From IMG/VR virus record IMGVR_UViG_3300032236_001473, positions 1-25,586 of that record: a DNA stretch of 25,586 nucleotides; one strand, written 5' to 3'. Made by a program: the position numbers and the translations under genes. Numbering within the stretch: the stretch's first letter is position 1; each line of letters opens with the position of its first letter. Shown here piece after piece: positions 1 through 25,088 of the stretch. Under the pieces are notes generated by a model. It was not told the DNA's origin and made no database searches. It saw only the letters and a program-made list of their open reading frames with translations. The DNA is from a virus.

Positions 1-2193
1 GCTTTGCAAAGTTTATTTATTGCTCATCAAATTTCTGCATACTTTGATGAATATGGCATGATGAAATTTATAAGCCTTAAATCAATTTTAAACAAGTTTA
101 ATGCTAATACATTTGCTCCAGATTTTTCTGTAACTGATAAAGCAGAAACAGTTAATGGAATTTCTTACACAGCAAATATAATACCAGCAACATTTACAGA
201 AACAATTGGACCAAAAGTTGGAAAAGTTATAATTAATTATAAAATTCCTAACACAGCATATAGCGATTATGTATCTGATTTAAATTCTCAAGTTGGTCTT
301 ATTTCTAAAAAAAGAAATACTGTCAAAACTATTTGGCAAGAAGATGTTGAGAATGCATTGCCTTGTACAGAAATATCAAAATCAATGAATACTTATCAAA
401 ATTATTTTAATTTTGATCCATCTATAATTCTTCAAATGTCAAGAACTATAGGTAATAATAAAGGTGAAATATTTATAGGGTCCGAAATAATTTCTTATGA
501 AGGATTAGAGTACAAATTTTTTCCAAGCAATAATTTTGGTTTAAGCATAAATAAAATAATAACTGGCCCCGCAGATATAGACAATGCAGTAAGAGAAATT
601 AAAGACTACATTGTAAGTTTAGGGCAAACATTTGATGAGATAAGATATTATCCTACGGGTAAAGCCGTAGGCGTAATGCGTGGAAAATACAATACACCAA
701 TTCAAAATCATTATATATTTGATAGTGCTGCTGGAACTGCAAATGAAGTATCGGGAACAATAAGTCCTACAAATTATTTTCAATCAGCTAATTTAGTTAA
801 TGGAAATACATCTGTGTCTTTTGGGACAATAGGTCAAGGTTCTGCATTTTCTTATGGAACAGCAAGAATGTCAAATGCTAACATAAATAATTCAACTTTA
901 TTATCTCCAAATGAATTATCTAAAAATTATAATTATTTTGCAACAACTTTTAATTCAAGTTATAGACATGCAGATCAAACACAGTTTGGTTTATTTTTTA
1001 ATGTAGTAAATGGAGATTCTTCAAACGCACAATTCTTAAAAGTTTCTAGATATATTCCTTCAAGTGGAACATCAACAAATACACAAATAGAATTATTTAC
1101 TGGAAGCCCTACAGGAACACCTACATCTGTAATATCAACCGCATCTTACTCATCTTCTGGAACTACAGCAGTAACAACTACACAGCCATACAAGCAAGTA
1201 GTCTCATTAGATTTGTTTGATGGAGTTAATCATAGACTTTCAGTCTATCTTTCATCTCCATATTTGTATATTTATATTGATGGTAGAGAAATAACTAAAA
1301 TACAATTAAATGGTAATCTTACAAGTATTATTCCAAATAGCACATCCAATTTTGGAGCATTTGTATCTTGTTCAAAAAATGGAATAGCTTCTGCAAAATT
1401 AACAGAAATATATGCAGCAAATTTTCCAGTTGTTGATGGATTAAATAACCAAGCTGATTTCAAATATCTTCCAAGATATCATTTCAATACAGAAAGCTTT
1501 TTAGATAATATTGTTCACGGAATACAAAATTCTGTTGATCATTATTTATGGCAAGCAAAACCACAAATTCGTGGATTTAAATTTTATGATGTAAAACACT
1601 CCCTATCTCCTGCTTTGCCAGATACGGCATCTCTTCAAAAAGTGTTTTATGGAACAGCAACAGCAAATGATAGTCTTACGAATATTATAATGGGGCGAGT
1701 AGACTCCTGGAATGCATCCTATTCAAAAATTGCAATGACCCCATTCAGATCTAGATTTGCTGTAGTAAATAACCATAATCAAATAATTTGGTTAAAAGCA
1801 CCTGGGGATAACATAGGAAATCTAACTATTTTTCCATTACAGATTCAAGCTAATTATCAATTTTTAACTAATCAAATAGTATTAGAAAAAGTTATTGATA
1901 GAAAATATGCAAATACTTCTGTTCAAATGACTACTGATTGGATTCAAGGAGAAAATGATGCAACTAGAATACTTCTTGATTCTGCAAGTTTGCTTACTGG
2001 ATTCCATAAAGAAATATCAATTCAGGTATTTGGCAATCCATTAATTCAAATTGGAGATTTTTGTAAATTTACATATTCATTAAAACGAATGGGTACACAA
2101 AGTCCAAGCTATTATTTTGTTAAAACAGTAACTCAATCATACAATAATGGATTAACTACACAATTAATCTTAAAACCAATGATTTTTGCATAA
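1..2193 (+). CDS. Tail-hub-like minor tail protein with lectin-type (LamG/ConA-like) domain, 5' partial
   Basis: The reading frame is open to the left edge, so the true start is probably outside the window; about 730 residues are visible and the TTG at base 4 has no visible support. Counting from that TTG, residues about 235-480 look like a laminin-G/concanavalin jelly roll: alternating beta strands with the typical 'LYIYIDGREI' strand-turn (bases 1264-1293) and a closing 'GAFVSC' strand. The C-terminal part has a 'GNPLIQIGDFC' segment (bases 2032-2064) and ends with 'GLTTQLILKP', a pattern seen in tail hub or baseplate proteins that carry an OB-like domain. I infer a distal tail protein whose lectin-like insert may touch a cell-surface glycan. 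Three further structural-looking genes follow at once. Lysine is mostly AAA, unlike the SSB gene. Family assignment rests on fold pattern, not alignment. Confidence 0.65.
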   Translation, partial: ALQSLFIAHQISAYFDEYGMMKFISLKSILNKFNANTFAPDFSVTDKAETVNGISYTANIIPATFTETIGPKVGKVIINYKIPNTAYSDYVSDLNSQVGLISKKRNTVKTIWQEDVENALPCTEISKSMNTYQNYFNFDPSIILQMSRTIGNNKGEIFIGSEIISYEGLEYKFFPSNNFGLSINKIITGPADIDNAVREIKDYIVSLGQTFDEIRYYPTGKAVGVMRGKYNTPIQNHYIFDSAAGTANEVSGTISPTNYFQSANLVNGNTSVSFGTIGQGSAFSYGTARMSNANINNSTLLSPNELSKNYNYFATTFNSSYRHADQTQFGLFFNVVNGDSSNAQFLKVSRYIPSSGTSTNTQIELFTGSPTGTPTSVISTASYSSSGTTAVTTTQPYKQVVSLDLFDGVNHRLSVYLSSPYLYIYIDGREITKIQLNGNLTSIIPNSTSNFGAFVSCSKNGIASAKLTEIYAANFPVVDGLNNQADFKYLPRYHFNTESFLDNIVHGIQNSVDHYLWQAKPQIRGFKFYDVKHSLSPALPDTASLQKVFYGTATANDSLTNIIMGRVDSWNASYSKIAMTPFRSRFAVVNNHNQIIWLKAPGDNIGNLTIFPLQIQANYQFLTNQIVLEKVIDRKYANTSVQMTTDWIQGENDATRILLDSASLLTGFHKEISIQVFGNPLIQIGDFCKFTYSLKRMGTQSPSYYFVKTVTQSYNNGLTTQLILKPMIFA

Positions 2194-2194
2194 A

Positions 2195-2203
2195 TGATAT
2201 AAT
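2195..2203 (+). promoter_or_regulatory. Extended -10 promoter candidate (TGATATAAT)
   Basis: A perfect extended -10 box lies in the 28-base gap right after the stop codon of the tail-hub gene. No good -35 hexamer is seen. Start of transcription would be near 2210, giving a leader of about 12 bases that holds the GGTGG ribosome site of the next gene. The same nine bases recur at 25094. TATAAT also appears inside coding sequence here, so position in the gap is the main support. Confidence 0.45.
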
Positions 2204-2221
2204 ATAGAAGGTGGTGAAAAT

Positions 2222-3100
2222 ATGCGTGAAGCAATGCTAATTGATGGAGGTAACGAACCTACTCCAGCAAAAACTTTTGATTTTGATCCTGCTGCAAATG
2301 TTCCACCAAATCCAGGACCAACAACAAGCACGTCTACATTAATTGATATATTTGCACAATCGGGTTTTTCTTCAAATAGTTCTTCTTCAACCTCAACAAA
2401 TGTTTCTAGTTATACACAACCAATTTCAGCACCTGTTCAACCAACAATACAACCTCTTTACCCAACAGATCCTAGAAACACAGAAGCTTTTGCCGTAGCA
2501 TTTAGAACAATAAATGGTCATGTTCCAACATCTGCAGATTTTGCAGCATGGAGACAATCTTTGATTCCACCAATGCCTACAGACGCTGGTCCAAATCAAC
2601 ATTATAAATACTATCCTCAAACTGGATGGAAATTATATTGGGATATTGGTTATGGTCCAGGAGGTTGGGGAAGCTCTTTACAAACTTTGGGAACAAATAC
2701 AAATGCATCAACAGACATATTTTCATCAAGCTCTTTGGGGTCTGTTATAGATTCAAGTTCTATAAATTCATTATCAGTTATTGACGCTCCAACACTTGAT
2801 ATAACTATCCCACCAGCAAACGGTGGGTCTGGCTCAGTTGAAACAGCACCTACAATATCTACTGATGTAACTTCTGTTCCTCAACCACCAGCAGCAATTC
2901 CAGCACCAATATACGCATTAGACACTCCAACAAATTTATATATAGATCCATCATCATTTGTTGCTGTCCCTATAACAGAAACTGTTATAATTAATGGATC
3001 TGCAACAATAATATCATCTACTGTATATACAACAAGCGTAAAATTTGATTCAGTAGATGGAGCAGTAAGTTATAACTTTAGGATAAGTGCAACCGTATGA
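2222..3100 (+). CDS. Ser/Thr/Pro-rich tail protein ending in an incomplete fibronectin III domain
   Basis: 292 residues. The ATG follows a GGTGG ribosome site by a few bases. Residues 25-80 are low-complexity Ser/Thr/Pro/Asn linker. Residues 84-150 form a compact aromatic-rich segment (AFRTINGH, FAAWRQSL, GWKLYWDIGYGPGGWG) that I do not recognise. Residues 160-230 are linker again. From about 234 the sequence looks like the first strands of a fibronectin III domain (PTNLYI, then VKFDSVDGAVSYNFRI), but the protein stops at residue 292 before the second half. The missing half appears to be the small gene at 5067-5258, on the far side of the next gene. Its stop overlaps the next start (ATGA). 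Likely a virion tail component. The function of the aromatic segment is unknown. Confidence 0.7.
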   Translation: MREAMLIDGGNEPTPAKTFDFDPAANVPPNPGPTTSTSTLIDIFAQSGFSSNSSSSTSTNVSSYTQPISAPVQPTIQPLYPTDPRNTEAFAVAFRTINGHVPTSADFAAWRQSLIPPMPTDAGPNQHYKYYPQTGWKLYWDIGYGPGGWGSSLQTLGTNTNASTDIFSSSSLGSVIDSSSINSLSVIDAPTLDITIPPANGGSGSVETAPTISTDVTSVPQPPAAIPAPIYALDTPTNLYIDPSSFVAVPITETVIINGSATIISSTVYTTSVKFDSVDGAVSYNFRISATV

Positions 3101-5067
3101 TAAAAGGCAAATATATAATAAAATCAGATGGCAAGATTATTGCTGAAAAAGAAAACCTAATTACTACAAATGGTTTTTATATGATTAATAGACACCTAGC
3201 TAAGTCAAGTATTGATTGGGCGGGAGGTCTAACTATTGGTGCTGTTCCAGCTAATCCAGCACTAACAGATAAAGTTTTATATTATGAGATTGATAGAATG
3301 CCTATTACTTTAAAATCTTATGCAAAAATGAGTCCAAAGTTTATTATTATTAATAAACAATTAACAAGTAATATAGCTTATTTAAATTTCAAATCTATAA
3401 CAGCTCCACTACTTGCATCAGGATATAAAATACAGGTAACTGGTATAGACTCAGTATTTAATGGTACTTATAATATATCATCTATACAATCATTGCAAGC
3501 TACAATAACAAACGTATCTGCTTCTACAGGCACTATAACTTATACTGCTGCTAATTCATTCACCCCTGGAGAACAGGTTGTTGTTACTGGAGTAAACCCA
3601 ACTGCATATAATATAACTGGAACAATTGCAACAGCATCTTCATCTCAATTTACAGTAGTAAATGCAGCAACAGGATCTTATGTTTCAGGCGGAACTGCAA
3701 CTCAAACCTATGGTTATCAAGTTCAATATCCAAAAACAAATACAGATGTTTCTTCTACTGTCGTATCAAGCAACACAGCTTTAGTTACAGTATTAACAGA
3801 TAATTTAGGAAACTCAATATTTAATAATGAAATAATTGTAAAAGCAACATTAGACCCAGCTTTAGCAGCAAGGATTTCTGAAGTTGGAATTATACCAATT
3901 AATTTAAAACAAAGTAATAATGCAACTACAAGAAATATAACTGGATTTTCTGAAAAATCAAATACAGATGCATCATTAAGTCAATGGTCAAGCACATCTT
4001 CAGGATCGCAAGTTGCATTACTAGGACAAACATCAATTAATGGATCAGCATTGTCTCAGCAATCGGGTTATACATGGCTTACTGGAACTTCTAATGTAAC
4101 AATAAATGTTGCAAATGCACAAGGTTTAAAAGTTGGAAGCTCTGTTTATATAACAGGGACAACAGCAGCATCAGGTTCTTCTCTTGCCCCATCTGGCTCA
4201 GGTACAGTTTATCAAGTAAATGGTAACTATCAAGTTGTAGTAACAATGGGTTCATCAAATTCAACTGGATCTACCCAGTATGGTTATGGTGGAACACTTT
4301 CATTAAATTCAACAACATTACAACAGCCAAGCACATATGGTCAATTTAATATAGCTTTATCTTCATCAGATACAGTTTCCATATCAAATGTTTCAATTGA
4401 TGCAACTGGACATTCATCTTCAGATAGTTTATTATTACTTTATTATTCAGGTTCAGCTGCAAATAATACTGCAATAACAATTAATTTAACAGATAACAAT
4501 AATGCATCTTCTCCGTTTGCATGCGTAGCTACTGGTATAGTTACTAATATTGGTTTAAATGTTGCTCGAATTCCTTTGCCTTCAACATTCCCAACAGCTG
4601 GAATAACTATAAATTCTTTAAGTATAAATATGTCAGCGGGCCCATCAGTGATATATTTGGATTCGTTAAAAATTGTTACAAATGATTATTGGACAGGGCA
4701 TCCATATGCGGGAACACTTGCAGTTACAACAGTAACTCCATCATCCCCATCATCTGGGTATGTAACATATACTACATCAGGAGCACATAACTTTGCAATT
4801 GGAAACCAGGTTGTTATATCAGGATTAACGCCTTCTGGATATAGTGGAACATTTACCATTTATTCTGTTCCTACTAAAAATACTTTTGTTATTGCAAATT
4901 CAACAACTGGCACAGCAACTATAGGATCTCCAGCTCAAGCAGTTTCTGCAACTGTTGTTATTCTTCCACCAGAGTATCAGCTCACAAGCAGATCATTATT
5001 TACAACACCAATTATTAAAAATTCAGGACAACAGATGGACATTGAGTATCATCTGCAGGTGACATAA
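3097..5067 (+). CDS. Tail-fibre-like protein with four degenerate beta modules
   Basis: 656 residues, starting in an ATGA overlap with the previous gene; the nearest AGGA is 13 bases upstream, so coupled translation is likely. The N-terminus (GKYIIKSDGKI, then NLITTNGFYMI) matches a pattern common at the start of phage tail proteins. Four versions of one module are visible at residues about 92-140, 146-200, 326-398 and 552-612. They share a 'F-x-G-x-x-V-x-V-x-G' core followed by 'Y-x-G-T' and a closing 'F-x-V-x-N' (compare FTPGEQVVVTG with FAIGNQVVISG). The C-terminus (QMDIEYHLQVT) is also typical of this class. Composition is rich in Ser, Thr, Asn and Gly, as in beta-rich fibres. I infer a distal tail or receptor-binding structural protein. 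The gene sits exactly between two halves of a fibronectin III domain. Confidence 0.7.
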   Translation: MIKGKYIIKSDGKIIAEKENLITTNGFYMINRHLAKSSIDWAGGLTIGAVPANPALTDKVLYYEIDRMPITLKSYAKMSPKFIIINKQLTSNIAYLNFKSITAPLLASGYKIQVTGIDSVFNGTYNISSIQSLQATITNVSASTGTITYTAANSFTPGEQVVVTGVNPTAYNITGTIATASSSQFTVVNAATGSYVSGGTATQTYGYQVQYPKTNTDVSSTVVSSNTALVTVLTDNLGNSIFNNEIIVKATLDPALAARISEVGIIPINLKQSNNATTRNITGFSEKSNTDASLSQWSSTSSGSQVALLGQTSINGSALSQQSGYTWLTGTSNVTINVANAQGLKVGSSVYITGTTAASGSSLAPSGSGTVYQVNGNYQVVVTMGSSNSTGSTQYGYGGTLSLNSTTLQQPSTYGQFNIALSSSDTVSISNVSIDATGHSSSDSLLLLYYSGSAANNTAITINLTDNNNASSPFACVATGIVTNIGLNVARIPLPSTFPTAGITINSLSINMSAGPSVIYLDSLKIVTNDYWTGHPYAGTLAVTTVTPSSPSSGYVTYTTSGAHNFAIGNQVVISGLTPSGYSGTFTIYSVPTKNTFVIANSTTGTATIGSPAQAVSATVVILPPEYQLTSRSLFTTPIIKNSGQQMDIEYHLQVT

Positions 5068-5258
5068 TGGTATTAGCATCACCTGGACAAATAATATATG
5101 ATGCAGCAGGAAATCCATTACCAATATCTTCTGTTACATTAACTAATCTAAAAGCAGGAACTTCTTATGTTGTTCAAGTTCAAGCAGTTGGCGGGGACAA
5201 CAATGCTGTATCAGATTGGTCTGTGGGATACGTATTTGTAGTTCCGAATTTAACATAA
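5067..5258 (+). CDS. Small protein matching the second half of a fibronectin III domain
   Basis: 63 residues, starting in a TAATG overlap with the fibre-like gene and preceded by AGGTGA (5057-5062), so it is probably translated. It reads as the C-terminal strands of a fibronectin III domain: VTLTNLKAGTSYVVQVQAV is the classic E-F region ('GLkpgTsYtvrVrAv'), followed by SDWSVGYVFVV as the F-G turn and G strand. The first strands (A to C) are absent here but are present at the end of the 292-residue protein ending at 3100. The two pieces would make one domain of usual length. It may fold by pairing with that upstream partner, or it may be a remnant left when the 1.97-kb fibre gene arrived. Confidence 0.7.
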   Translation: MVLASPGQIIYDAAGNPLPISSVTLTNLKAGTSYVVQVQAVGGDNNAVSDWSVGYVFVVPNLT

Positions 5259-5260
5259 GG

Positions 5261-5266
5261 TATAAT
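5261..5266 (+). promoter_or_regulatory. -10 box candidate (TATAAT)
   Basis: A perfect TATAAT lies two bases after a stop codon in the 25-base gap before the gene at 5284. No convincing -35 is visible. The strong AAGGAG ribosome site (5272-5277) begins about where transcription would start, so a transcript from here would have a very short leader. Confidence 0.35.
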
Positions 5267-5283
5267 AATACAAGGAGAAAAAT

Positions 5284-5718
5284 ATGGCAAGTAACGTAGT
5301 TATAGATTCAACAGTAATAAGCTCTTTGCAATCACAAATTGCATCTGTGCAACAGTTCCTATCAAAAGGACAATATTACTATAAGGGTAGAGAATATGCA
5401 TCTGCCTCTGTATTCCCATACCTACAATCTGGAACAATTCAAGCAATGTCTGTATTCCAAACTACTGTGCCAATTACGATTAATGGAGCAAAGGAAACGC
5501 TAGATCTTGTTGTTCCTCCAAATGCATTTAAAAATAAACCAGTGGTTAGTGCTGTAGTAGAATGTTCAAGTGCTCCAGGACCAATGATTCCAATCCTAAC
5601 AAATATTGATACCAGCTCTTATGCTATGAATTTTGACGTTCACACCATAACATCAAGTACATTTCCGTCTGGTGGTATCCCAGCGTTTGTTCATATTACT
5701 GCAATATCTTACGAGTAA
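5284..5718 (+). CDS. Small probable virion structural protein, unrecognised
   Basis: 144 residues with a strong AAGGAG ribosome site six bases before the ATG. The N-terminus (residues 5-28) is predicted helical with heptad-like Val/Leu/Ile spacing, which may allow oligomerisation. The rest is beta-rich: VFQTTVPITINGAKETLDLVV, then a Pro-rich stretch and a closing SGGIPAFVHITAISYE. There is no signal peptide or membrane segment. It is the last gene of the tail block and is followed by a new promoter, so it is likely a tail or fibre-associated component. I do not recognise the family. Confidence 0.6.
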   Translation: MASNVVIDSTVISSLQSQIASVQQFLSKGQYYYKGREYASASVFPYLQSGTIQAMSVFQTTVPITINGAKETLDLVVPPNAFKNKPVVSAVVECSSAPGPMIPILTNIDTSSYAMNFDVHTITSSTFPSGGIPAFVHITAISYE

Positions 5719-5721
5719 TTT

Positions 5722-5750
5722 TTGACTTATAAAATAATATAACTGATAAT
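5722..5750 (+). promoter_or_regulatory. Sigma70-like promoter, TTGACT-N17-GATAAT
   Basis: The -35 box TTGACT (5722-5727) and -10 box GATAAT (5745-5750) each match five of six consensus bases, with the ideal 17-base spacing. Both sit in the 53-base gap between the tail block and the phosphoesterase gene. Transcription would start near 5757 and leave a 15-base leader containing AAAGGA. This is the best two-box promoter seen in the window and probably starts the phosphoesterase, holin and early replication transcript. Confidence 0.65.
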
Positions 5751-5771
5751 TAACCAAAACAAAGGATTTTA

Positions 5772-6575
5772 ATGGCTAACGATTTAAAGTGGATGCTATC
5801 CTCTGATCAGCAATTTCCATATCAAGATGACAAAGCAATTGAGCTTTGGTTTAAGGTAATGAAATGGTTTAAACCAGATGTAGTTGATTACCTAGGCGAT
5901 ACTGATGACCAAGCATGCTACAGTAAATATACTGAAGGAAGATCAGCAGAATTTCTTCAGCTTCATAAAAATGACAGTAAAGATCTTATTGTTCCTATGA
6001 TGCGACATGAAGCAAAGGGTGCAAGAGATTTTTATGCAAAGACAAGAGACATGCTTCCAGATGCTCAATTATTCTCAGCATTGGGAAATCATGATATAAG
6101 AATTTTTGATTATCTTGATAAAAAAATGCCAGAGTATCTTCAAGATATTACACCAGAATCACTGTGGTCATTAGACTCTTTGGGTTATGAATATATATAT
6201 TATAATGAATTGCCCAAGCATCGTTTTGGTGATATTCACGTTCATCACGGTCTTTCAATTGCAGATACAGGTGCAGTAAGAAAAGACATAGATGATTTAC
6301 AAATTTCTTTAATTAGAGGTCATTCACATAGAATTGCTTCACATTTTCAAACATATGAGTTGCCACTTGCTACAGGCGGTAGAGCAATTCGTGGATATGA
6401 AATTGGACATATGTGTGATGAAAAAAGTGATGGTATGAAATATACACAAAATCACAATTGGCAAAAAGGTTTCGCAATCGCACATATTGAGAACGGTGAA
6501 CGTCCTCATGTACAGATTGTGGAAATTTCCCCAGACTACACTTGTTTTGTAGACGGGAAATTATTTAGTGTCTAA
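5772..6575 (+). CDS. Calcineurin-like metallophosphoesterase
   Basis: 267 residues; AAAGGA lies five bases before the ATG. The metal-binding motifs appear in family order: motif I D12-x-Q14 (SSDQQ), GDTDD at 42-46, GNHD at 105-108, HHG near 158-160 and GHSH at 183-186. These residues bind two metal ions in this superfamily, which hydrolyses phosphate mono- or diesters. Motif I has Gln where His is usual, a variant that may still bind metal. The length fits a single catalytic domain; no signal peptide or membrane helix is seen, so it should be cytoplasmic. It is the first gene after a strong promoter and its stop lies within the ribosome site of the holin gene. The substrate cannot be read from sequence: nucleic acid ends, nucleotides or signalling molecules are all possible. 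Confidence 0.85.
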   Translation: MANDLKWMLSSDQQFPYQDDKAIELWFKVMKWFKPDVVDYLGDTDDQACYSKYTEGRSAEFLQLHKNDSKDLIVPMMRHEAKGARDFYAKTRDMLPDAQLFSALGNHDIRIFDYLDKKMPEYLQDITPESLWSLDSLGYEYIYYNELPKHRFGDIHVHHGLSIADTGAVRKDIDDLQISLIRGHSHRIASHFQTYELPLATGGRAIRGYEIGHMCDEKSDGMKYTQNHNWQKGFAIAHIENGERPHVQIVEISPDYTCFVDGKLFSV

Positions 6576-7946: not shown

Positions 7947-8278
7947 TGGCTAAAGAAGATGCAAAGCAAGCTTACTCGCTTGTTTCTCTTTACCTATCTC
8001 TTTATAAAAATAAATATAATAAACAACCAATGGTAAATCGTTACAGAGAAAAATGGGCGATGCAAGATGTCATTGATACAGTAGGATTTGAAAGAGCAAA
8101 AGAGCTAATTGAATATTATTTTCAATGCAGTAAAGCTGGACATCCATTAAACTGGTTCTTATACAACTTTGACAAGCTTAATGACATTATGATAAAATCT
8201 GAAGAAGATGCTGAGTATCGCAAAGTACTAAGACAGCAAACAAGATTATTAGTAGAACAGGAATTAAATGAACACTGA
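7946..8278 (+). CDS. Unknown helical protein directly before the helicase (candidate loader)
   Basis: 110 residues; AGGA sits eight bases before the ATG, which overlaps the previous stop. It is helical and rich in aromatic residues: AYSLVSLYLSLYKNKY, then AKELIEYYFQCS, then HPLNWFLYNFDKLNDIM. The 'W-F-x-x-N-F-D-x-L' end is reminiscent of short phage proteins that precede DnaB-type helicases. The next gene starts 11 bases before this one ends, so the two are translationally linked. Position makes a helicase loader or adaptor a reasonable guess, but no AAA+ motif is present, so it is not a DnaC homologue. Confidence 0.55.
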   Translation: MAKEDAKQAYSLVSLYLSLYKNKYNKQPMVNRYREKWAMQDVIDTVGFERAKELIEYYFQCSKAGHPLNWFLYNFDKLNDIMIKSEEDAEYRKVLRQQTRLLVEQELNEH

Positions 8279-9497
8279 GGCTGCATTACTTTCTGCAATT
8301 TGTAAGAATAAAGATATCGCCACAGTGCTTTCAGATAATGTTGATGATATTTTTACTTCCCACCGTGATGTTTGGGAAGGATTAAAGTCTTATTATTTAA
8401 AGTTTCGTGCGGTTCCCGATGTTTCTGTTATACAAGAAAAGTTTAAAGATTTTGAACCAGAATCCGTAAAAGGAGAGACTGGCTATTATCTTGATAATTT
8501 AAAGAATGAGTTTTTAACTACAAGAGTAAAAGATGTATTGTTGCGTAATGGAGCAAGTTTAAAAAATAATTCTGCTACAAGAGTTATTCTTGAAATGCAA
8601 ACAGAGCTAAACGCCCTTTCCAGACTCACAGGTGCTGTCAGAGATGTTGATCTTACAGACTTTGAGTTGGCAGAAAAACATTTTGAAGCAATCCGTGAAC
8701 GTTCTCTTGCTATGGGTGGAAGCCCAGGAATTAAAACTGGATTCAATGCCATTGACCTAGCCTACCCTACTGGAATGGCTCCAGGGCACCTTATAGTAAT
8801 GATCGGTTGGCCAGGCAGGGGTAAGACATGGTTTTCATCCTACTTGGCTTGTAAGGCGTGGGAACAGGGTTTTAGACCTATGATTATCTCGCTTGAGATG
8901 TCTCCAGAAAATATGCGTGATCGTATTTATACAATGATGGGTTCAGGATTATTTAGGGCATCAGATTTTTCAAAAGGTATGGTAAATACAGATGATTTCC
9001 ACTCTTGGGCGGAAAATAAATTTGCAGACAAAAACAGTTTTATCCTTATTTCCAATGAAGGTCAAGGTCAAGTAACTCCCAATACAGTACAGGCAAAGAT
9101 TGATCAATATAAACCTGATATTGTTATTCTTGATTATCATCAACTATTTAATGATTCATCTGGAGCTAAATCAGAAGTTGAAAGAAATAGAAATATTTCT
9201 CGTGACTTTAAACTTTTAGCAGTTCGAAATGGAATTCCAGTTGTTGATATTACCGCTGCAACAATGGATGATGTTTCAGATCAAGAAGGTCCTCCAATGA
9301 TGTCACAAGTAGCATGGTCAAAGGCTATTGAATATGATGCTGACGTTGCAATTGCTGTGCACAAACAACCAGATTCAAATATTATGGAAATTGTAAGTCG
9401 TAAAAATCGTCACGGAACTAATTTTGATTTCTATCTAGATTGGGATCTTAACCGTGGTATTGTAAAAGAAATTTATGAAATGGACATTCAGCAATAA
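8268..9497 (+). CDS. Replicative DnaB-type helicase
   Basis: 409 residues; AGGA lies five bases before the ATG. The N-terminal helical part (1-125) matches a shortened DnaB N domain. The RecA-like motor follows: Walker A GWPGRGKT at 180-187, the DnaB motif SLEM at 208-211, and Walker B IVILDY at 285-290. SRKNRHGTNFDFYLDWD near the C-terminus is the usual 'K-x-R-x-G' finger region. It should form a hexamer that unwinds the fork and recruits the primase encoded downstream. It is a little shorter than bacterial DnaB (about 450-470), mostly in the N domain. It follows the candidate loader and is followed by a promoter. Confidence 0.93.
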   Translation: MNTEAALLSAICKNKDIATVLSDNVDDIFTSHRDVWEGLKSYYLKFRAVPDVSVIQEKFKDFEPESVKGETGYYLDNLKNEFLTTRVKDVLLRNGASLKNNSATRVILEMQTELNALSRLTGAVRDVDLTDFELAEKHFEAIRERSLAMGGSPGIKTGFNAIDLAYPTGMAPGHLIVMIGWPGRGKTWFSSYLACKAWEQGFRPMIISLEMSPENMRDRIYTMMGSGLFRASDFSKGMVNTDDFHSWAENKFADKNSFILISNEGQGQVTPNTVQAKIDQYKPDIVILDYHQLFNDSSGAKSEVERNRNISRDFKLLAVRNGIPVVDITAATMDDVSDQEGPPMMSQVAWSKAIEYDADVAIAVHKQPDSNIMEIVSRKNRHGTNFDFYLDWDLNRGIVKEIYEMDIQQ

Positions 9498-9846: not shown

Positions 9847-10809
9847 ATGTTGCTTGCTGAAAGATATAATCAAAAACAAATAAAAGAAATCTTAAAAAGT
9901 GTTGGAGTACATATTACTTCTGAGACTACTACAGATTTTTTATGCTTATGCCCGTTTCATGATAATAAAAAAACTCCTTCTTTTGCGGTAAGTTATGAAA
10001 AAGGTTTGTATGTTTGTTACAATCCCTCATGCGGTGCTAAGGGTAAGCTCATTGATCTTGTAAAAAAAGCTGGTCAACTAAATGATTTTCAAGCTATGAG
10101 ATTAATGGCTAATCTTAAAAAAGAACAATATGAAACCTTTGATGATGACCTAGAAGCATTGATGGAAGACAAGCCAGAGTTTGAAGAATTCCCTCAAGAA
10201 ACGCTAGACAAACTTTTTAAAGATTTAAAAAATTCTGAAAGGGCAAAGCAATACTTTTTGTCTCGTGGAATAAACTTTGAGTCTATGGATTATTTTAAAC
10301 TAGGGTATTCTGAAAATCAAGATATGGTTATAGTTCCAGTGCATAGCCCAACAGGGATACCAGTTGGTTTAGTTGGTAGATCAATTGAAGGTAAAAGTTT
10401 TAAGAATAGCACCAACCTGCCTAGAAGCTTAACTATGTTTAATTTACATAGAGCTAGAAAACTTAGCGACACAATAATTGTTTGTGAATCTTCTTTTGAT
10501 GCAATCAGAATACATCAAGCAGGTTATCCAAATGTAATTGCAACATTAGGTGGAAGCTTGTCTAAAGAAAACCTAGCAAACTTAAATAAATATTCTTCAT
10601 CTATTATTATTGCAACAGATGCAGATGAGGCTGGCAGAAAGCTTGGCAGAGAAATTGCTGCACGGTTAAAGAATAAATCAATATCTTGGGCATCATATGA
10701 CATGGATATTGTATATCCACATGATGCAAAAGATGTGGGCGATCTCACAGATGAAGAAATAAAACAATGTATAAAGAACGCTGTAAGTAATTTTGAGTAT
10801 TTAAATTAG
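9847..10809 (+). CDS. DnaG-type primase
   Basis: 320 residues. A CHC2 zinc-binding domain is at the N-terminus (C35-x2-H38, then C57 and C62; CPFHDNKKTPSF is typical). The TOPRIM catalytic domain follows, with the acidic Glu in VCESSFDA (E214) and the DAD motif at 258-260 (IATDADEAGRKLG). It makes RNA primers for the DnaE below and should act with the DnaB-type helicase. It lacks the C-terminal helicase-binding domain of bacterial DnaG (about 580-600 residues), as many phage primases do. GGAG (9841-9844) is only two bases before the ATG; a TTG at 9850 would be better spaced, so the start may be one codon later or the mRNA leaderless. Confidence 0.92.
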   Translation: MLLAERYNQKQIKEILKSVGVHITSETTTDFLCLCPFHDNKKTPSFAVSYEKGLYVCYNPSCGAKGKLIDLVKKAGQLNDFQAMRLMANLKKEQYETFDDDLEALMEDKPEFEEFPQETLDKLFKDLKNSERAKQYFLSRGINFESMDYFKLGYSENQDMVIVPVHSPTGIPVGLVGRSIEGKSFKNSTNLPRSLTMFNLHRARKLSDTIIVCESSFDAIRIHQAGYPNVIATLGGSLSKENLANLNKYSSSIIIATDADEAGRKLGREIAARLKNKSISWASYDMDIVYPHDAKDVGDLTDEEIKQCIKNAVSNFEYLN

Positions 10810-11537: not shown

Positions 11538-11560
11538 TCTAAACTAAAACTGGAGTATTG

Positions 11561-14500
11561 GTGAATTTCACACATTTACATGTGCACTCGCACTATTCTT
11601 TGATGGATGGCTTGTGTTCTGCTGAAGAACTATTGACTGCTGCAAAAAATGCGGGACAAACAGCAATGGCTATTACAGATCACGGAACTTTAGCATCTCA
11701 TAGAGAAATGCAAGTAGCAGCTAGAAAATTGGGAATGAAGCCAATACTCGGTATAGAAGCATATATATCAGCTACAGATCGTTTTGACAAGCGTGATATT
11801 AAAAAACGTGATGATAATACTCAAGTATTTAATCATATTATCTTGCTTGCTAAAAATAATGATGGTTTAAAAAACCTACAAAAGCTTTCTGAAATTGCAT
11901 GGACAGAAGGATATTATCGTAAGCCACGCATTGATTTAGAAGTTCTTGAAGAATATGGCGATGGACTTATTGTACTATCTGGTTGCATGAATGGTCTTAT
12001 TTCAAAAGCAATTCAGCGTAACGATATGGAAAAAGCATTTGAATATGCCAGATGGTTTCAAAATAGATTTGGCGATGATTTTTACTTAGAAGTGCAATCT
12101 CATAATGATAAAGAAATTAATGATGGTCTTGTGAATATTGGAAGAAAGCTTGGAATTAAACTAGTTGCTACTGGAGATTGTCACTATGCAACTAAAGAAC
12201 AAAAAGCATTAGAAGAAGTTCTTTTGATTCTTTCTACAAAACCTGATATTGCAGAAGGTGCCAACTACGAGTCTGGCAAAAAGTTTAAAGATATATTTGA
12301 AAGATTTAATCATTTGTATCCAGACCGTCCAATTTCATTTCAAGATATTAATGTTTATATTCAAAGCATTGATGAAATCAGATTTGATTTTGGAAGCGAT
12401 TGGTCAGATGAAATTTATTCAAATACCCAAGAGATTGCTGATAAAGTAGAAGAATATGATTTTCATGAAAATTTGCAACTTCTACCAAAGCCTAAAAAAG
12501 ATGCACATAAACAACTTATTGAAATGTGTAGCGAATCTTTAAAAGAAAAAGGATTAGAGAATGACCAATACAAAGAAAGGCTTGAAGAAGAACTTCAAGT
12601 CATTAAAGATAAAGAGTTTAGTAGTTATTTTCTTGTTGTTGGTGACATGGTACGTTGGGCTAAGGAAAACCAAATCATGGTTGGCCCAGGACGTGGATCA
12701 GCAGCGGGATCATTAGTATGTTATTTATTGGGCATTACTGAAGTAGACCCAATTAAGTTTGACCTATTGTTTTTCCGTTTTATTAACCCAGAACGCAATG
12801 ACTTCCCAGATATTGATACGGACTTTATGGACCGCCGTCGTGGTGAAGTAAAAGATTATCTACGCAAAAAGTTTAAGAATGTTGCATCTATTTCAACTTA
12901 TCAATACTTTAAAGATAAGGGGGTTGTTAGAGATGCTGGTAGGGTATTTGATGTACCCCTTGGAGAAATTAATAAAGCTCTTAAAGGTGTAGAAACATTT
13001 GAAGAGTTTGAATCAAATAAAAATGTTGACTGGTTTAAACAAAAATATCCAGAAGTTTTGCAATTTGCATCAGATCTTCGTGGAAGAATTCGTTCTGTAG
13101 GAATTCACGCTGCAGGTGTTGTTGTTGCTAAAGAACCTATTTCTAAATATGCTCCTATTGAAACTAGAAGCGATAAAGATGAGGAAGTTTCTGGTCGTGT
13201 TCCAGTGGTGGCATATGACATGGATCAAGCAGCAGATATTGGTTTAATTAAGTTTGACGTACTCGGACTTAAAACATTATCTGTTATTCAAGATACAGTT
13301 AATATGATTAAAGATAGACACGGTAAAGATATTGATCTTCACAATCTGCCATTAGATGATAAAGAAATATTTTATGATCTTTCAAATGGTTTTACAAAAG
13401 GTGTGTTTCAAGCAGAAGCAACTCCATACACAAACCTTTTGATTAAAATGGGTGTAAGCAATTTTGAAGATTTAGTTGCTTCAAACGCACTAGTTCGTCC
13501 AGGTGCAATGAATACTGTAGGAGCTGAGTACGTAGGCAGAAAAAATGGTGACAAGATGGTTACGTATGTCCATCCAGTCATGAAGCCCTTCACGGAGAGA
13601 ACATACGGAGTTATTATTTATCAAGAACAGGTTATGCAAGCTTGCGTACACTTGGGCGGGATGTCATGGTCTGAAGCTGATAAGGTAAGAAAGATTATTG
13701 GTAAAAAGAAAGATGCAAAGGAATTTGATGTATTCAAAGACAAATTCGTCGAAGGTGCAAGACGTTTTATTTCTAAAGAAGATGCTGAACATCTGTGGCA
13801 CGATTTTGAAGCTCACGCTGGCTATTCCTTTAACCGCTCTCACGCTGTTGCTTATTCTATGCTTGGCTATTGGACTGCTTGGCTTAAGCACTATTACCCA
13901 CTTGAGTTTGTATTTGCTCTCCTTAAAAACGAAAAAGACAAAGACGCAAGGACAGAGTATTTACTGGAAGCAAAGAGACTTGGAATAAAAGTACTTCTTC
14001 CACACATTAATGAATCTGATCTTGATTTTAATATTCAAGGCAATAGCATTCGATTTGGCTTAGCAAATATTAAATATATATCTGAAAATATTGGCAAGAA
14101 GATTGTAAATGCTAGACCATTTACTTCATATGCTAATGTCTTAGAAATAGCTGGGACAAAAGGTTCTGGAATAAACTCAAGAGCAATATCTGCACTTAAT
14201 GAAATTGGTGCGTTGGCTTTTGAAGATAATCCAAGAACTGGAGATGAATCTAAAAACTATTATGAATATTTAGGCATACCTAAGTTTGACGTTAAAGGAC
14301 TTACTCCATATATTAGATCTCAAATTACTCCGCTTGAAGAATTTCTTGAAGAAGGAACTTTTATATTGCAGGCAATGGTAAGGTCAATTAAAAAAGGTAA
14401 GGGTTGGTCTCGTGTTGAATTAGTTGATGATACTGGATCTATTGGTATTTTTCATAATGAAAATACACAAATTGAAACGGGAAACATGTACTTCTTCCTA

Positions 14501-14827
14501 GTAGGCGACAATAGAATTCATAGATATGTTACAATAGAGGATGTAGTTAATCACAAAGAAGATCCATTTATTAACTATATGCATAATAAAGATTTGGGAA
14601 TTCCACAAGATAAAAAGTATGTCGTGGACTTCACACACTATAAAACAAAAGCTAATAAAATGATGGCACACATTATTTATTGCGATGAAAATAAAGAAAT
14701 GCAGCGTGTAATTGCTTTTCCAAAGATGTATACATCTGCTTTAGGAAAGATGCGAGTAGGATCTTTCTGTTCACCAGTCGTTTCCGAATTGGACGATGGT
14801 ACTAAATATGTAAAGGATATAAAATGA
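11561..14827 (+). CDS. dnaE: DNA polymerase III alpha subunit (DnaE type)
   Basis: 1088 residues from GTG 11561, chosen because GGAG (11552-11555) is five bases away; the in-frame TTG at 11558 is too close. The PHP domain comes first with its metal ligands apparently intact (HLHVHSHYS, TDHGTL, GDCHY), so it may proofread. The polymerase core has GPGRGS at 375-380, catalytic PDIDTDF with D417 and D419, and the third aspartate D566 in IKFDVLGLKTL. QEQVMQ, a helix-hairpin-helix region and a late OB-like segment (FILQAMVRSIKKGKGWSRVEL) follow. It replicates the phage genome with the helicase and primase encoded just upstream. Length is close to bacterial DnaE. No obvious beta-clamp motif was found by eye, and no clamp gene is in the window. 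Confidence 0.95.
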   Translation: MNFTHLHVHSHYSLMDGLCSAEELLTAAKNAGQTAMAITDHGTLASHREMQVAARKLGMKPILGIEAYISATDRFDKRDIKKRDDNTQVFNHIILLAKNNDGLKNLQKLSEIAWTEGYYRKPRIDLEVLEEYGDGLIVLSGCMNGLISKAIQRNDMEKAFEYARWFQNRFGDDFYLEVQSHNDKEINDGLVNIGRKLGIKLVATGDCHYATKEQKALEEVLLILSTKPDIAEGANYESGKKFKDIFERFNHLYPDRPISFQDINVYIQSIDEIRFDFGSDWSDEIYSNTQEIADKVEEYDFHENLQLLPKPKKDAHKQLIEMCSESLKEKGLENDQYKERLEEELQVIKDKEFSSYFLVVGDMVRWAKENQIMVGPGRGSAAGSLVCYLLGITEVDPIKFDLLFFRFINPERNDFPDIDTDFMDRRRGEVKDYLRKKFKNVASISTYQYFKDKGVVRDAGRVFDVPLGEINKALKGVETFEEFESNKNVDWFKQKYPEVLQFASDLRGRIRSVGIHAAGVVVAKEPISKYAPIETRSDKDEEVSGRVPVVAYDMDQAADIGLIKFDVLGLKTLSVIQDTVNMIKDRHGKDIDLHNLPLDDKEIFYDLSNGFTKGVFQAEATPYTNLLIKMGVSNFEDLVASNALVRPGAMNTVGAEYVGRKNGDKMVTYVHPVMKPFTERTYGVIIYQEQVMQACVHLGGMSWSEADKVRKIIGKKKDAKEFDVFKDKFVEGARRFISKEDAEHLWHDFEAHAGYSFNRSHAVAYSMLGYWTAWLKHYYPLEFVFALLKNEKDKDARTEYLLEAKRLGIKVLLPHINESDLDFNIQGNSIRFGLANIKYISENIGKKIVNARPFTSYANVLEIAGTKGSGINSRAISALNEIGALAFEDNPRTGDESKNYYEYLGIPKFDVKGLTPYIRSQITPLEEFLEEGTFILQAMVRSIKKGKGWSRVELVDDTGSIGIFHNENTQIETGNMYFFLVGDNRIHRYVTIEDVVNHKEDPFINYMHNKDLGIPQDKKYVVDFTHYKTKANKMMAHIIYCDENKEMQRVIAFPKMYTSALGKMRVGSFCSPVVSELDDGTKYVKDIK

Positions 14828-15090: not shown

Positions 15091-16089
15091 ATGACGATGC
15101 TAGCAGAAAAGATACTCGCTGGACTTGATCCAAAAACAAGACAGCGTGTTCAAATGGCTACTGGAGTTGATGCAGAGCGTCAAAAGACTCCAAGCATAAG
15201 CCTTAACCTTGCTTTAAAAGGCGGGTTAGGGTATGGTAGGCAGGTTCTTGTTTGGGGAAACAAGTCTGCTGGTAAGTCATCATTTTGTTTACAAATGATT
15301 GGCATGGCTCAAAAAGAAGGTAAGACATGTGCTTGGATTGATTCAGAACATTCTTATTCAGCTGAATGGGCAGAAAAGCTTGGAGTAGATTCATCTTCTC
15401 TTATTTATTCACAAGCTAAAACAATTAATGATATGGTTGATGTAGCTCAACAACTCATGGAAGCTGGAGTTGATATAATTGTAGTAGACTCAATCTCAGC
15501 ATTGCTTCCAGCAATTTATTTTGAAAAAGATAGTGATGAACTAAAAAAGCTAGAGGACACCAAGCAGATTGGTGCAGAGGCAAAGGATATGACACATGCA
15601 GTCAAAATGCTTAATTATGCAAACAAGAATACGTTATTGGTTCTTATTTCTCAGCAGAGAAACCAGTTTGGCAGTATGCATGCATCGCACATTCCCACAG
15701 GAGGGATGGCTGTTAAGTTTTTCTCCAGCACCGTCATCAAGCTTTGGTCATCAGAAGCTGAAGCAAATGCTATTAAAGCTGGAATCCAAGTTGGTGACAA
15801 GATACTTGAACAAAAAGTGGGAAGACCCGTCAACTGGATCATTGATTACAATAAGCTCGGTCCTATGGGCCAGTCAGGTCAATACGATTTTTACTATCAA
15901 GGGGATAAAGTCGGGGTTGATTCGATAGGTGAAGTTTTGGATGCAGCTGAAATGATGGGCAAAGTTCAAAAAGGCGGAGCCTGGTATACAGTTGGAGAAG
16001 AAAGATTGCAGGGAAGAAATAAGGCAGTTGAGTATTTAAGATCTAATCCTGAAGTCGTAGAAAGTTTAAAAGCATCTTTATATGAGTAA
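15091..16089 (+). CDS. recA: RecA-type recombinase
   Basis: 332 residues. Walker A is GNKSAGKS at 56-63, the catalytic Glu is E86 in IDSEHSYS, and Walker B is at 127-134 (VDIIVVDS). The L2 region (QQRNQFGSMHASHIPTGGMAVKFF) ends with the RecA-like 'TGG-x-A-x-KFF' block, so this is a RecA rather than a UvsX. It forms filaments on single-stranded DNA and drives strand exchange. E. coli RecA has 353 residues; the C-terminal domain is shorter here. A second ATG lies six bases downstream and neither has a clear ribosome site, so the start is uncertain by two codons. Neighbouring nucleases make a recombination module. Confidence 0.95.
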   Translation: MTMLAEKILAGLDPKTRQRVQMATGVDAERQKTPSISLNLALKGGLGYGRQVLVWGNKSAGKSSFCLQMIGMAQKEGKTCAWIDSEHSYSAEWAEKLGVDSSSLIYSQAKTINDMVDVAQQLMEAGVDIIVVDSISALLPAIYFEKDSDELKKLEDTKQIGAEAKDMTHAVKMLNYANKNTLLVLISQQRNQFGSMHASHIPTGGMAVKFFSSTVIKLWSSEAEANAIKAGIQVGDKILEQKVGRPVNWIIDYNKLGPMGQSGQYDFYYQGDKVGVDSIGEVLDAAEMMGKVQKGGAWYTVGEERLQGRNKAVEYLRSNPEVVESLKASLYE

Positions 16090-17050: not shown

Positions 17051-17830
17051 TTGGGATCTATATCCACACTTAAGTTAAAAAAGAAAGATGGGTTCGACCC
17101 AGTAAAGTTTGCATCAGAGTTTGAAGAAACATATGAAAGTAAAGCAGGCTTTACACAGAAAAATACATTCTCACCCAGCACATTAGGCTATGGTCACGGT
17201 AACTGTGCTAGATACTGGTTCATAGCATTTAATGGTGCGGACTTTAAAGATACTGCCAAACCACAAGCTAAAGCTGCTATGGAAAATGGTAACTTTGTTC
17301 ATGATAGATTGCAAGAGCGTATGAGTAAAATGCATAAATCTTATAAAGTTATTGCTCATGAAGTTGAAACAACTTATGACAATCCACCAATCAGAGGTTT
17401 TCTTGATACTCTTATTCAAGATATGGACAATGATCAAATTGTTCCAATTGAAATTAAATCTGCAAAAGATGCTCAACACAACATAAAAGCAATAAGCAAA
17501 GAGCCATCAGATAATCATAGAATTCAACTATTGACATATATGAAAATCTGGGGATATAAAGAAGGTTGCTTTATGTATGAAAATAAAGATGATCAAACTT
17601 TAGTATTTATTCCAATTCAAATGGATGCAAAAAATCAAGAATTAATTGAATATGTATTTGATTGGTTGCGTGGAGTAAAGCAATTGCATATTGATGAAAC
17701 ATTGCCAAACAGAGCATTTACAAAATCTACTTGGGCATGTAAAGGTTGTCCAGTATTTGATGCATGCTGGAAAGACATGAAAGATAAAGAAGGGGAAGTT
17801 CAGTATCCTGCAATGGAGGTTAAGATATGA
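17051..17830 (+). CDS. Cas4/AddB-like PD-(D/E)XK exonuclease with Fe-S cysteines
   Basis: 259 residues. The TTG start follows the previous stop directly and has GGAG with a five-base gap, so it is well supported. The nuclease core has H84, D119 (GFLDTLI), E134-x-K136 (PIEIKSAK) and Q159 with Y163 (HRIQLLTYMKI). Four cysteines, C52 and C230, C233, C239 (CKGCPVFDAC), match the split iron-sulphur site of Cas4 and AddB. Such proteins resect DNA ends in recombination and repair. In phages they usually stand alone, without CRISPR genes, as here; no array or other Cas gene was seen. With RecA and the resolvase candidates it forms a DNA end-processing set. Confidence 0.85.
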   Translation: MGSISTLKLKKKDGFDPVKFASEFEETYESKAGFTQKNTFSPSTLGYGHGNCARYWFIAFNGADFKDTAKPQAKAAMENGNFVHDRLQERMSKMHKSYKVIAHEVETTYDNPPIRGFLDTLIQDMDNDQIVPIEIKSAKDAQHNIKAISKEPSDNHRIQLLTYMKIWGYKEGCFMYENKDDQTLVFIPIQMDAKNQELIEYVFDWLRGVKQLHIDETLPNRAFTKSTWACKGCPVFDACWKDMKDKEGEVQYPAMEVKI

Positions 17831-18552
17831 TAACTCTTAGCAAAAAAGCAATTGTATTTACAGCTTTTGATCGTGTAGATTATTTAAAACAAACTCTTGA
17901 ATCATGGTCAAAAGTTAGATCAATTCAAGAATATGACATTTATTTTAAAGTTGAACCATCTGATAGAACAGATGAAGTTTGTGACATTATTAATGATTTT
18001 GCAGAAAAAATTGGTAACATTATAAATGTTAATATAAATAATAAAGTTATGGGATGTGCTGCAAATACATGGTTTGCACTTGATAAAACATTTGAAGAAT
18101 ATGAATTTGTAATACTTGCCGAAGATGACATTATGGTATCAGAAGATGTTTGTGAATACTTTAACTATTTAGAAAATAAATATAGAGATGATCTTTCTGT
18201 AGGAACTATATCTGCATCAGGAGAAAGACCAGAATTTGATCCCTCAAAAGTTTTAAGAGTATCAGGATTTCAAGGATTAATTTGGGGAACATGGAGAAAT
18301 GTTTGGCTAAATTACTTTAAGGATACTTGGGATTGGAACTATTCAAGTGGTAACGGCGGACCTTCTGGTTGGGATTGGAACTTAAATCTTAGAGTTATGC
18401 CAAGAAATCATCTATTCTGTATTGTTCCGCATACAGCAAGATCATTGCATATTGGTGTAAATGGATTACATTCAAATGAAGAAATATTTGATGGCACACA
18501 AACTAAATCTTTTAAAAATGATTATCAATGGGAAGAGCTGATAGAAGTATGA
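17827..18552 (+). CDS. Glycosyltransferase, GT-A type
   Basis: 241 residues; GGAGG lies just before the ATG, which overlaps the previous stop. The N-terminus (KKAIVFTAFDRVDYLKQTLESW) is the usual nucleotide-sugar-binding start of GT-A enzymes, and EDD at 99-101 (VILAEDDIMVSED) is the metal-binding acidic motif. Trp/Gly-rich stretches (FQGLIWGTWRNVWL, GPSGWDWNLNL) may shape the acceptor site. No membrane segment, so it is cytosolic. It transfers a sugar from an NDP-sugar; the acceptor may be phage DNA, a virion protein or a host glycan. An epimerase/dehydratase that could make the sugar lies at 24060-25088. Donor and acceptor cannot be read from sequence. Confidence 0.75.
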   Translation: MITLSKKAIVFTAFDRVDYLKQTLESWSKVRSIQEYDIYFKVEPSDRTDEVCDIINDFAEKIGNIINVNINNKVMGCAANTWFALDKTFEEYEFVILAEDDIMVSEDVCEYFNYLENKYRDDLSVGTISASGERPEFDPSKVLRVSGFQGLIWGTWRNVWLNYFKDTWDWNYSSGNGGPSGWDWNLNLRVMPRNHLFCIVPHTARSLHIGVNGLHSNEEIFDGTQTKSFKNDYQWEELIEV

Positions 18553-24059: not shown

Positions 24060-25088
24060 ATGAATATATTAATAACTGGCGGTGGTGGTTTTGTTGGACA
24101 TCATTTGGTAGATTATTTATTAGAGAATACTGATTGGAATATATCAGTAATTGAATCTTTTAAGCATGGCGGGATGTCTCAAAAATTATCATATGTAATA
24201 GATAAACACAAAGATGAATTTAATAGAATAAATATTGTAACTCATGATTTATCAACTCCTATAGATCCTATAACATCATATAAAATTGGTAAAGTTGATG
24301 TAATTGTTAACGTAGCTTCAAAATCAAGTGTAGATGAATCAATAGAAAATCCCGTAGATTTTATAAATAATAATATTAATCTTCAATTAAACATGCTTGA
24401 ATATGCAAGATCATTAAATAATTTAAAAACTTTTATTCAAATATCTACAGACGAAGTATTTGGACCAGCCGAAGATGATCAAAAACATTCTGAATGGCAA
24501 GAATTTATACCTTCCAATCCATATTCCGCATCCAAAGCTTCTCAAGAATCTATATGCCATGCTTATTGGAGAACTTATGATTTACCAATAGTAATAACCA
24601 ATACTATGAATATGTTTGGAGAAAGGCAAAGCACTAAAGCTTTTATACCAAAAACAATTGAGCACATATTAAATGATAAAATAGTTCCAGTATATTCAGA
24701 ATTTGTTGATGGTAAACTAGTGCCTTTTAGTAGATTTTATCTATATATAAAAAATCAAACAAGTGCTATTAAGTTTTTAATAGATTATTATTGCAAGACC
24801 CCGCATAGGATTAGTGATGGGCTTGAAAGATTGCCTAAATTTAATATTACAGATGGTCATGAATTTGATAATGATGAGATTGTTAAAATGGTTGCAAAAT
24901 TATTAAATGTTGAAAAAAATACATTTGAATATGTAAATGGTGTAAAATTTAGGCCAGGTCATGATAAAAGATATGATTTAAATGGTAATAAGCTTATAGG
25001 TATGGGTTGGAAGCCACCATATTCATTTGAAGAATCTATTGAAAAAACAGTTAATTGGGGCAAAAATAACCTTGATTGGTTAGTCTAA
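24060..25088 (+). CDS. NAD-dependent sugar epimerase/dehydratase (extended SDR)
   Basis: 342 residues; AAGGAA lies before the ATG. The Rossmann start NILITGGGGFVGHHL has the GxxGxxG motif, followed by STDEVFG at 129-135 and the catalytic Y155-x3-K159 (YSASK). The T-D-E triad after the beta strand is typical of dTDP-glucose 4,6-dehydratase (RmlB-type) and related NDP-sugar enzymes, and NMFGERQ and RPGHDKRY fit the substrate domain. It would change the sugar of an NDP-sugar in the cytosol. The glycosyltransferase at 17827-18552 could use the product. The length is usual (about 340). The exact substrate is not readable from sequence. It starts after the terminator and is followed by a small promoter-like box. 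Confidence 0.85.
   Translation: MNILITGGGGFVGHHLVDYLLENTDWNISVIESFKHGGMSQKLSYVIDKHKDEFNRINIVTHDLSTPIDPITSYKIGKVDVIVNVASKSSVDESIENPVDFINNNINLQLNMLEYARSLNNLKTFIQISTDEVFGPAEDDQKHSEWQEFIPSNPYSASKASQESICHAYWRTYDLPIVITNTMNMFGERQSTKAFIPKTIEHILNDKIVPVYSEFVDGKLVPFSRFYLYIKNQTSAIKFLIDYYCKTPHRISDGLERLPKFNITDGHEFDNDEIVKMVAKLLNVEKNTFEYVNGVKFRPGHDKRYDLNGNKLIGMGWKPPYSFEESIEKTVNWGKNNLDWLV

What the first reader, a model, noticed from the sequence alone, without database searches (positions are those of the whole stretch)
2924..5258. A fibronectin III domain interrupted by a whole tail gene
The 292-residue protein ends with the A-to-C strands of a fibronectin III domain (PTNLYI ... VKFDSVDGAVSYNFRI). The 63-residue protein at 5067 supplies the missing strands (VTLTNLKAGTSYVVQVQAV, SDWSVGY). 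Between them lies a complete 656-residue fibre-like gene joined by ATGA and TAATG overlaps. GTAT occurs at both junctions (3095-3098 and 5070-5073); joining there gives an uninterrupted frame reading ...SATV|LASPG.... A short repeat of four bases can arise by chance, so the in-frame rejoining is the stronger point. Options are gene insertion into a tail gene, a domain assembled from two chains, or recoding.
Basis: partly seen in the sequence, partly recalled or inferred. Interest (0 to 1): 0.65.

Follow-up and report, generated by a model that had tools for sequence, protein, structure and literature searches.

The report
Fibronectin domain split across tail genes
In this phage and in hundreds of related phage sequences, one small building block of the tail seems to be coded in two separate pieces with a complete sugar-binding-type tail gene between them, so the block must be put together from two proteins, much as the phage lambda tail tip is.

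Summary
In detail: a 292-aa protein, a 656-aa protein and a 63-aa protein overlap by ATGA and TAATG, and the 63-aa protein is the E-F-G half of a fibronectin III (FN3) domain. The layout is not a recent insertion in this phage. The same order (hub, N-half protein, middle tail protein, C-half protein) with breaks at the same places occurs in three freshwater relatives, 127 Streptomyces phage records, Rhodococcus phages and about 110 IMG/VR loci. No uninterrupted version was found in 50,697 phage records. In Streptomyces phages the C-half opens a fibre of up to about 2,000 aa with four more FN3 domains. The shared GTAT is not conserved, so it is chance. The reading phase at junction 2 differs between lineages and no slippery site was found, so recoding is not supported. 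No intron was found. Best explanation: two chains, made by coupled translation, complete one FN3 joint in the tail tip, and the middle protein (a carbohydrate-binding-like jelly roll) is a third chain. Lambda gpL/gpI/gpJ is a solved precedent. Weakest point: the N-half is not significantly FN3 by sequence profile and did not fold alone. New variant of a known kind.

The parts
4..2193 (+). C-terminal part of the tail hub/minor tail protein (open at the left edge of the record)
   Evidence: phrog_10359 minor tail protein, E 3e-12; full-length relative is 1,464 aa in L001; same position as the hub-like gene of Streptomyces phages
2222..3100 (+). N-half protein, 292 aa: linker, small domain (residues about 85-148), and putative FN3 strands A-C at the C-terminus
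   Evidence: conserved in L001, L002, L019 with the same end FRISAT[VI]/YRISATI; counterpart of phrog_11696 proteins of Streptomyces phages
2912..3097 (+). Putative FN3 strands A-B-C (last 62 residues)
   Evidence: pattern and register with FN3 C strand; profile support weak
3097..3100 (+). Junction 1, ATGA stop/start overlap (AGGA at 3080-3083 upstream)
3097..5067 (+). Middle tail protein, 656 aa; ends homologous to the 265-298 aa middle protein of Streptomyces and Rhodococcus phages, enlarged here by extra beta modules
   Evidence: tblastn 2e-7, phrog_9983 tail, alignment A3; model of a 298-aa relative has a CBM11-like jelly roll
5057..5062 (+). AGGTGA, Shine-Dalgarno-like site 4 bases before the start codon of the 63-aa gene
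   Evidence: sequence; conserved in the relatives, partly because it codes for middle-protein residues
5065..5069 (+). Junction 2, TAATG stop/start overlap
5067..5258 (+). C-half protein, 63 aa: FN3 strands (C')-E-F-G, stand-alone in this lineage
   Evidence: Pfam fn3 E 1.6e-5; PDB profile E 6e-12; N-terminus of the large fibre in Streptomyces phages

Best explanation
The three genes are consecutive, translation-coupled tail-tip genes. The end of the N-half protein (strands A-C) and the start of the C-half protein (strands E-G) are made as separate chains and complete one FN3 sandwich by non-covalent assembly. The protein coded between them is a separate chain with a carbohydrate-binding-like jelly roll that is probably mounted at the same place. 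In Streptomyces and Rhodococcus phages this joint would fix the long FN3-rich fibre to an adaptor next to the hub; in the window's lineage the C-half has been reduced to a free 63-residue cap. The colinear order suggests an ancestral chain with the middle domain inserted in the C-E loop of the FN3, later cut into three genes. Shown: the gene order, its conservation, selection on all three frames, the FN3 nature of the C-half, the jelly roll of the middle protein (in a Streptomyces-type relative), and the absence of recoding or intron signals. Inferred: translation coupling, the FN3 nature of the N-half, assembly of the halves in one particle, position next to the hub, and the ancestral insertion.
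For: Same three-gene layout, breaks at the same places, in L001, L002 and L019; in GenBank phages and IMG/VR loci read directly; matches to the middle protein in 127 Streptomyces records and to the N-half in 121; 79 of 80 loci of a second freshwater lineage with TAATG at junction 2. In every Streptomyces-type locus the N-half protein ends just after its C-strand-like motif and the next-but-one gene starts at the E strand; joined they give 85-88 residues, the length of one FN3. The C-half is FN3 by Pfam and PDB profiles and is followed in most fibres by four whole FN3 domains. Low dN with high dS in both halves. The N-half alone does not fold confidently (pLDDT 30-43), as expected of half a domain but not proof. 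Solved precedent: in lambda the C-terminus of gpL and the N-terminus of gpJ together form the domain that is one chain in T5 pb3, and gene I between them matches the inserted plug domain (PMC10721106).
Against: The N-half has no significant FN3 match in Pfam or PDB. Its best profile alignment is in register with the FN3 C strand but at under 10% probability, and true N-halves of neighbouring FN3 domains score better. The joined profile beats a column-shuffled control only slightly. No complex could be modelled here. One related locus (L022) has two N-half proteins for one C-half, so a simple 1:1 pairing may not be general.
Confidence: 0.64

Rival explanations
1. The C-half is a truncated FN3 that is completed by another partner (a neighbouring subunit of the fibre trimer, or the middle protein), and the end of the N-half protein is an unrelated beta hairpin that binds elsewhere. 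The gene order is shared only because tail genes travel together.
For: N-half not recognised as FN3 by any profile; in the window lineage the C-half is a free 63-aa protein; L022 has two N-half proteins.
Against: N-half ends and C-half starts complement each other in strand content and total length in the lineages read; the N-half C-strand motif is in FN3 register; the C-half always lacks strands A-C.
Confidence: 0.22
2. The pieces are joined into one or two longer chains by programmed frameshifting or ribosomal bypassing at the ATGA and TAATG junctions.
For: Most junctions put the next gene in the -1 frame.
Against: ATGA, GTGA and TAATG overlaps are -1 by construction; no slippery heptamer at either junction in the window and three relatives; junction 2 has phase 0 in Francesca and NiceHouse and +1 in Trina; to my knowledge no bypass of 2 kb is known.
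Confidence: 0.05
3. The middle gene is a recent mobile insertion (with a GTAT target duplication), an intron or an intein-like element in a formerly whole tail gene.
For: In-frame rejoining in the window; group I introns are known in mycobacteriophage tail genes (PMC3706429).
Against: GTAT not conserved; same interruption in distant phages with no empty site found; no Rfam match in 2000-6000; the middle gene is a conserved tail protein with no mobility domain found.
Confidence: 0.05

Closest known systems
Phage lambda tail tip gpL / gpI / gpJ compared with T5 pb3 (PMC10721106)
   Same: A tail-tip domain that is one chain in one phage is divided between two proteins whose genes flank another tail gene; that intervening gene matches a domain inserted in the single-chain version; solved by cryo-EM.
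   Different: There the split domain is the HDII-insertion domain with an iron-sulphur site in gpL and the gene between codes a lumen plug; here it is an FN3 domain and the gene between codes a carbohydrate-binding-like protein. No single-chain version has been found here.
Rhodobacter gene transfer agent RcGTA gp13 / gp15 (described in PMC10721106)
   Same: HDII-insertion domain distributed over two tail-tip proteins with a gene between.
   Different: No FN3; different domain and partners.
phrog_11696 / phrog_9983 / phrog_11445 gene run of Stanwilliamsviridae
   Same: Direct counterparts of the arrangement; N-half, middle and C-half fibre in the same order.
   Different: C-half is the start of a fibre of up to about 2,000 aa there and a free 63-aa protein in the window; middle protein is 265-298 aa there and 656 aa here. 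The split itself was not described in the papers found.

Membership tests
Pfam fn3 (PF00041), the 63-aa C-half | score above the gathering cut-off, strands E-F | tested here: met
   25.4 bits against 25, profile 49-72/84; only the second half of the profile
Pfam fn3 (PF00041), C-terminus of the 292-aa protein | match to profile positions 1-48 (strands A-C) | tested here: not met
   no fn3 match for any of 13 N-halves alone; hhalign against fibre FN3 domains 0.1-8% probability
Split FN3 domain | two chains in one sandwich | not testable with these tools
Tail-tip domain divided over two genes around a third (lambda gpL/gpI/gpJ kind) | conserved gene order half - whole gene - half | tested here: met
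Tail-tip domain divided over two genes around a third (lambda gpL/gpI/gpJ kind) | a relative with the domain in one chain | tested here: inconclusive
   none in 50,697 phage records at 80% coverage nor in the IMG/VR loci read; a diverged single-chain version could be missed
Programmed frameshift | conserved slippery heptamer and conserved phase | tested here: not met
Self-splicing intron | covariance-model match and an empty-site relative | tested here: not met
   no Rfam match at E 0.1; no empty site
Carbohydrate-binding jelly roll (CBM11-like) in the middle protein | fold | tested here: met
   model pLDDT 89.8 of the Streptomyces-type relative; CBM11 Z 13.4, 142 residues, rmsd 2.9. Sugar binding not tested; the 656-aa form of the window was not modelled

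The most novel reading that the evidence does not exclude
Actinophages use a natural split FN3 as an assembly lock: neither half folds until the hub-side adaptor and the fibre meet during or after coupled translation, so completion of the domain is both the mounting step and a check that the tail tip is complete. The lock is kept even where, as in this window, the fibre has been lost from the C-half.
Probability: 0.3. Interest if true: 0.75.

Novelty: new variant of a known kind. Interest (0 to 1): 0.55.

Why it matters
If right, it is a widespread natural split domain that annotation has missed ('hypothetical protein' before the 'tail protein'), a second example after lambda gpL/gpJ of a tail-tip domain cut by gene boundaries, and a guide to how the fibre is mounted in Stanwilliamsviridae and freshwater phages. 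It also warns that an FN3 half at the end of a phage protein need not be a wrong gene call.

Tried and rejected
GTAT as target-site duplication: not conserved. Frameshift: no heptamer, phase varies. Intron: no Rfam match. Uninterrupted relative: none by tblastn of the joined halves, none among 30 plus 80 IMG/VR loci; the one bacterial hit (L078) showed nothing resembling the array. N-half as FN3 by sequence: Pfam, PDB hmmsearch, HMMs from fibre FN3 domains with shuffles, hhalign with column shuffles, and a joined versus shuffled profile control all gave weak or no support. Model of the 292-aa protein: C-terminus not confident. The VIA/Foldseek rows cover residues about 59-262 of the middle protein; its N- and C-terminal strands are barely tested. 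An alignment of all N-halves was not conserved enough to scan with.

Full report
WHAT IS THERE. The window is a whole IMG/VR virus record of 25,586 bases. From the left edge it holds the C-terminal part of a hub-like minor tail protein (phrog_10359, E 3e-12), then three genes that overlap: 292 aa (2222-3100), 656 aa (3097-5067) and 63 aa (5067-5258), joined by ATGA and TAATG. The 63-aa protein is the second half of a fibronectin III domain: Pfam fn3 positions 49-72 of 84 and, as a family profile, fibronectin itself in the PDB at E 6e-12. The last 62 residues of the 292-aa protein look like strands A, B and C (VKFDSVDGAVSYNFRI), but no profile recognises them.

IT IS NOT PRIVATE TO THIS PHAGE. 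IMG/VR relatives L001, L002 and L019 have the same three genes, broken at the same residues. The middle protein led to Streptomyces phages. There the order is again hub, a protein of about 112-131 aa annotated 'hypothetical', a 265-298 aa tail protein, and a fibre of 1,100-2,000 aa. The 'hypothetical' protein ends in ...VVDVVIELEDVTGATEYDVRMTKA and stops; the fibre starts MTRILLRDLEPGRLYHIQARATNGEQSSQWSQLWDLQTT, the E-F-G half of FN3, and in most cases goes on with four whole FN3 domains. The middle protein has matches in 127 Streptomyces records, of both subfamilies of Stanwilliamsviridae read here, and in Rhodococcus phages. Joined halves matched no record over 80% of their length, so no uninterrupted version is known there. 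All 30 IMG/VR loci found by the Streptomyces-type C-half, and the three of the window's type, are split. A second freshwater lineage, found through L020, has the same layout, with TAATG at junction 2 in 79 of 80 loci; the remaining one lacked an ATG in the script's search range.

A VARIANT. L022 has two tandem N-half proteins (FPWPITIKSVTADKDPSGETWANLIIEFDEIVGASGYEVRMNLL), each running on into another domain, then the middle gene, then one C-half fibre. So the N-half can carry a domain directly after strand C, which fits an ancestral insertion in that loop, but it breaks a simple 1:1 count.

IS IT TRANSLATED AND SELECTED? Between the window and its three freshwater relatives dN is 0.02-0.32 and dS 0.34-1.22 in the FN3 end of the N-half protein, and dN 0.04-0.25 and dS 0.61-1.07 in the C-half. 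An AGGTGA lies 4 bases before the 63-aa start codon.

IS IT RECODED, SPLICED OR A FRESH INSERTION? No slippery heptamer occurs at either junction. The phase at junction 2 is -1 in most, 0 in Francesca and NiceHouse, +1 in Trina. Rfam finds nothing. GTAT is absent at junction 1 of L019 and at junction 2 of L002 and L019. None of these three readings is supported.

HOW GOOD IS THE FN3 CASE FOR THE N-HALF? For: it ends just after a C-strand-like motif, the C-half begins at the E strand, and joined they have the length of one FN3 (85-88 residues in Streptomyces and Rhodococcus phages, about 122 in the window lineage with longer loops); the best profile position is the FN3 C strand in register; the joined window sequence scores 29.9 bits to fn3 against 25.4 for the C-half alone. 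Against: no significant match alone, real N-halves of neighbouring FN3 domains score better, and the joined profile exceeds a column-shuffled control only slightly (best E 2.9e-4 against 2.1e-3). AlphaFold2 gives no confident fold to this end alone, which half a domain would also show. This is the weak link, and it sets the confidence.

THE MIDDLE PROTEIN. A confident model of a 298-aa relative (pLDDT 89.8) contains a jelly roll like carbohydrate-binding module 11 (Z 13.4 over 142 residues) and like part of the turret of Haloferax tailed virus 1 (Z 16.3). It is most likely a cell-surface binding tail protein (inference from fold and annotation). In the window it is enlarged to 656 aa by extra beta modules.

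MECHANISM. I take the three as separate chains made in balanced amounts by stop-start coupling; the two halves complete one FN3 in the tail tip. In Streptomyces phages that joins the fibre to an adaptor; in the window the C-half is only a cap. The precedent is lambda: the C-terminus of gpL and the N-terminus of gpJ together correspond to one domain of T5 pb3, and gene I between them corresponds to the plug domain inserted in pb3 (PMC10721106). The same order half - inserted unit - half suggests that here too a domain inserted in a loop was turned into its own gene.

NOVELTY. The held open-access papers gave no description of this split; most subscription papers could not be searched. The kind is known (lambda); the domain, the partners and the spread are new. 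I class it as a new variant of a known kind.

Noticed in passing
L022:2185-3971: Two tandem paralogous N-half proteins (280 and 320 aa), each with an FN3 A-C-like start and a different following domain, before one middle gene and one C-half fibre.
   Followed up: partly
window 3097-5067 (residues about 137-203 and 544-620) and L020:3716-4465: A beta module (..GTITYTA..F..GE.V.VTGV.P..YN.TG....F.......G..) appears in the window's middle protein, in two diverged copies, and also in the C-half protein of the other freshwater lineage, so modules seem to be shuffled between middle and C-half proteins.
   Followed up: no
window 2474-2665 (residues 85-148 of the 292-aa protein): A small domain (NTEAFAVAFRTINGHVPTSADFAAWR..GWKLYWDIGYGPGGWG) modelled with pLDDT about 62-87 and with no evident counterpart in the Streptomyces N-half proteins.
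   Followed up: no
window 5284-5718: 144-aa probable tail fibre tip (weak phrog_14469), followed by a metallophosphoesterase (5772-6575); a metallophosphoesterase also lies downstream of the tail genes in Coruscant and Francesca.
   Followed up: no
window 11558-14827 and neighbours: Phage-coded DNA polymerase III alpha subunit with PHP domain, with DnaB-like helicase (8268-9497), DnaG-like primase (9847-10809) and RecA/UvsX (15091-16089).
   Followed up: no
window 24060-25088: GDP-mannose dehydratase/NAD-dependent epimerase family protein, and a weak glycosyltransferase-like match at 17827-18552.
   Followed up: no
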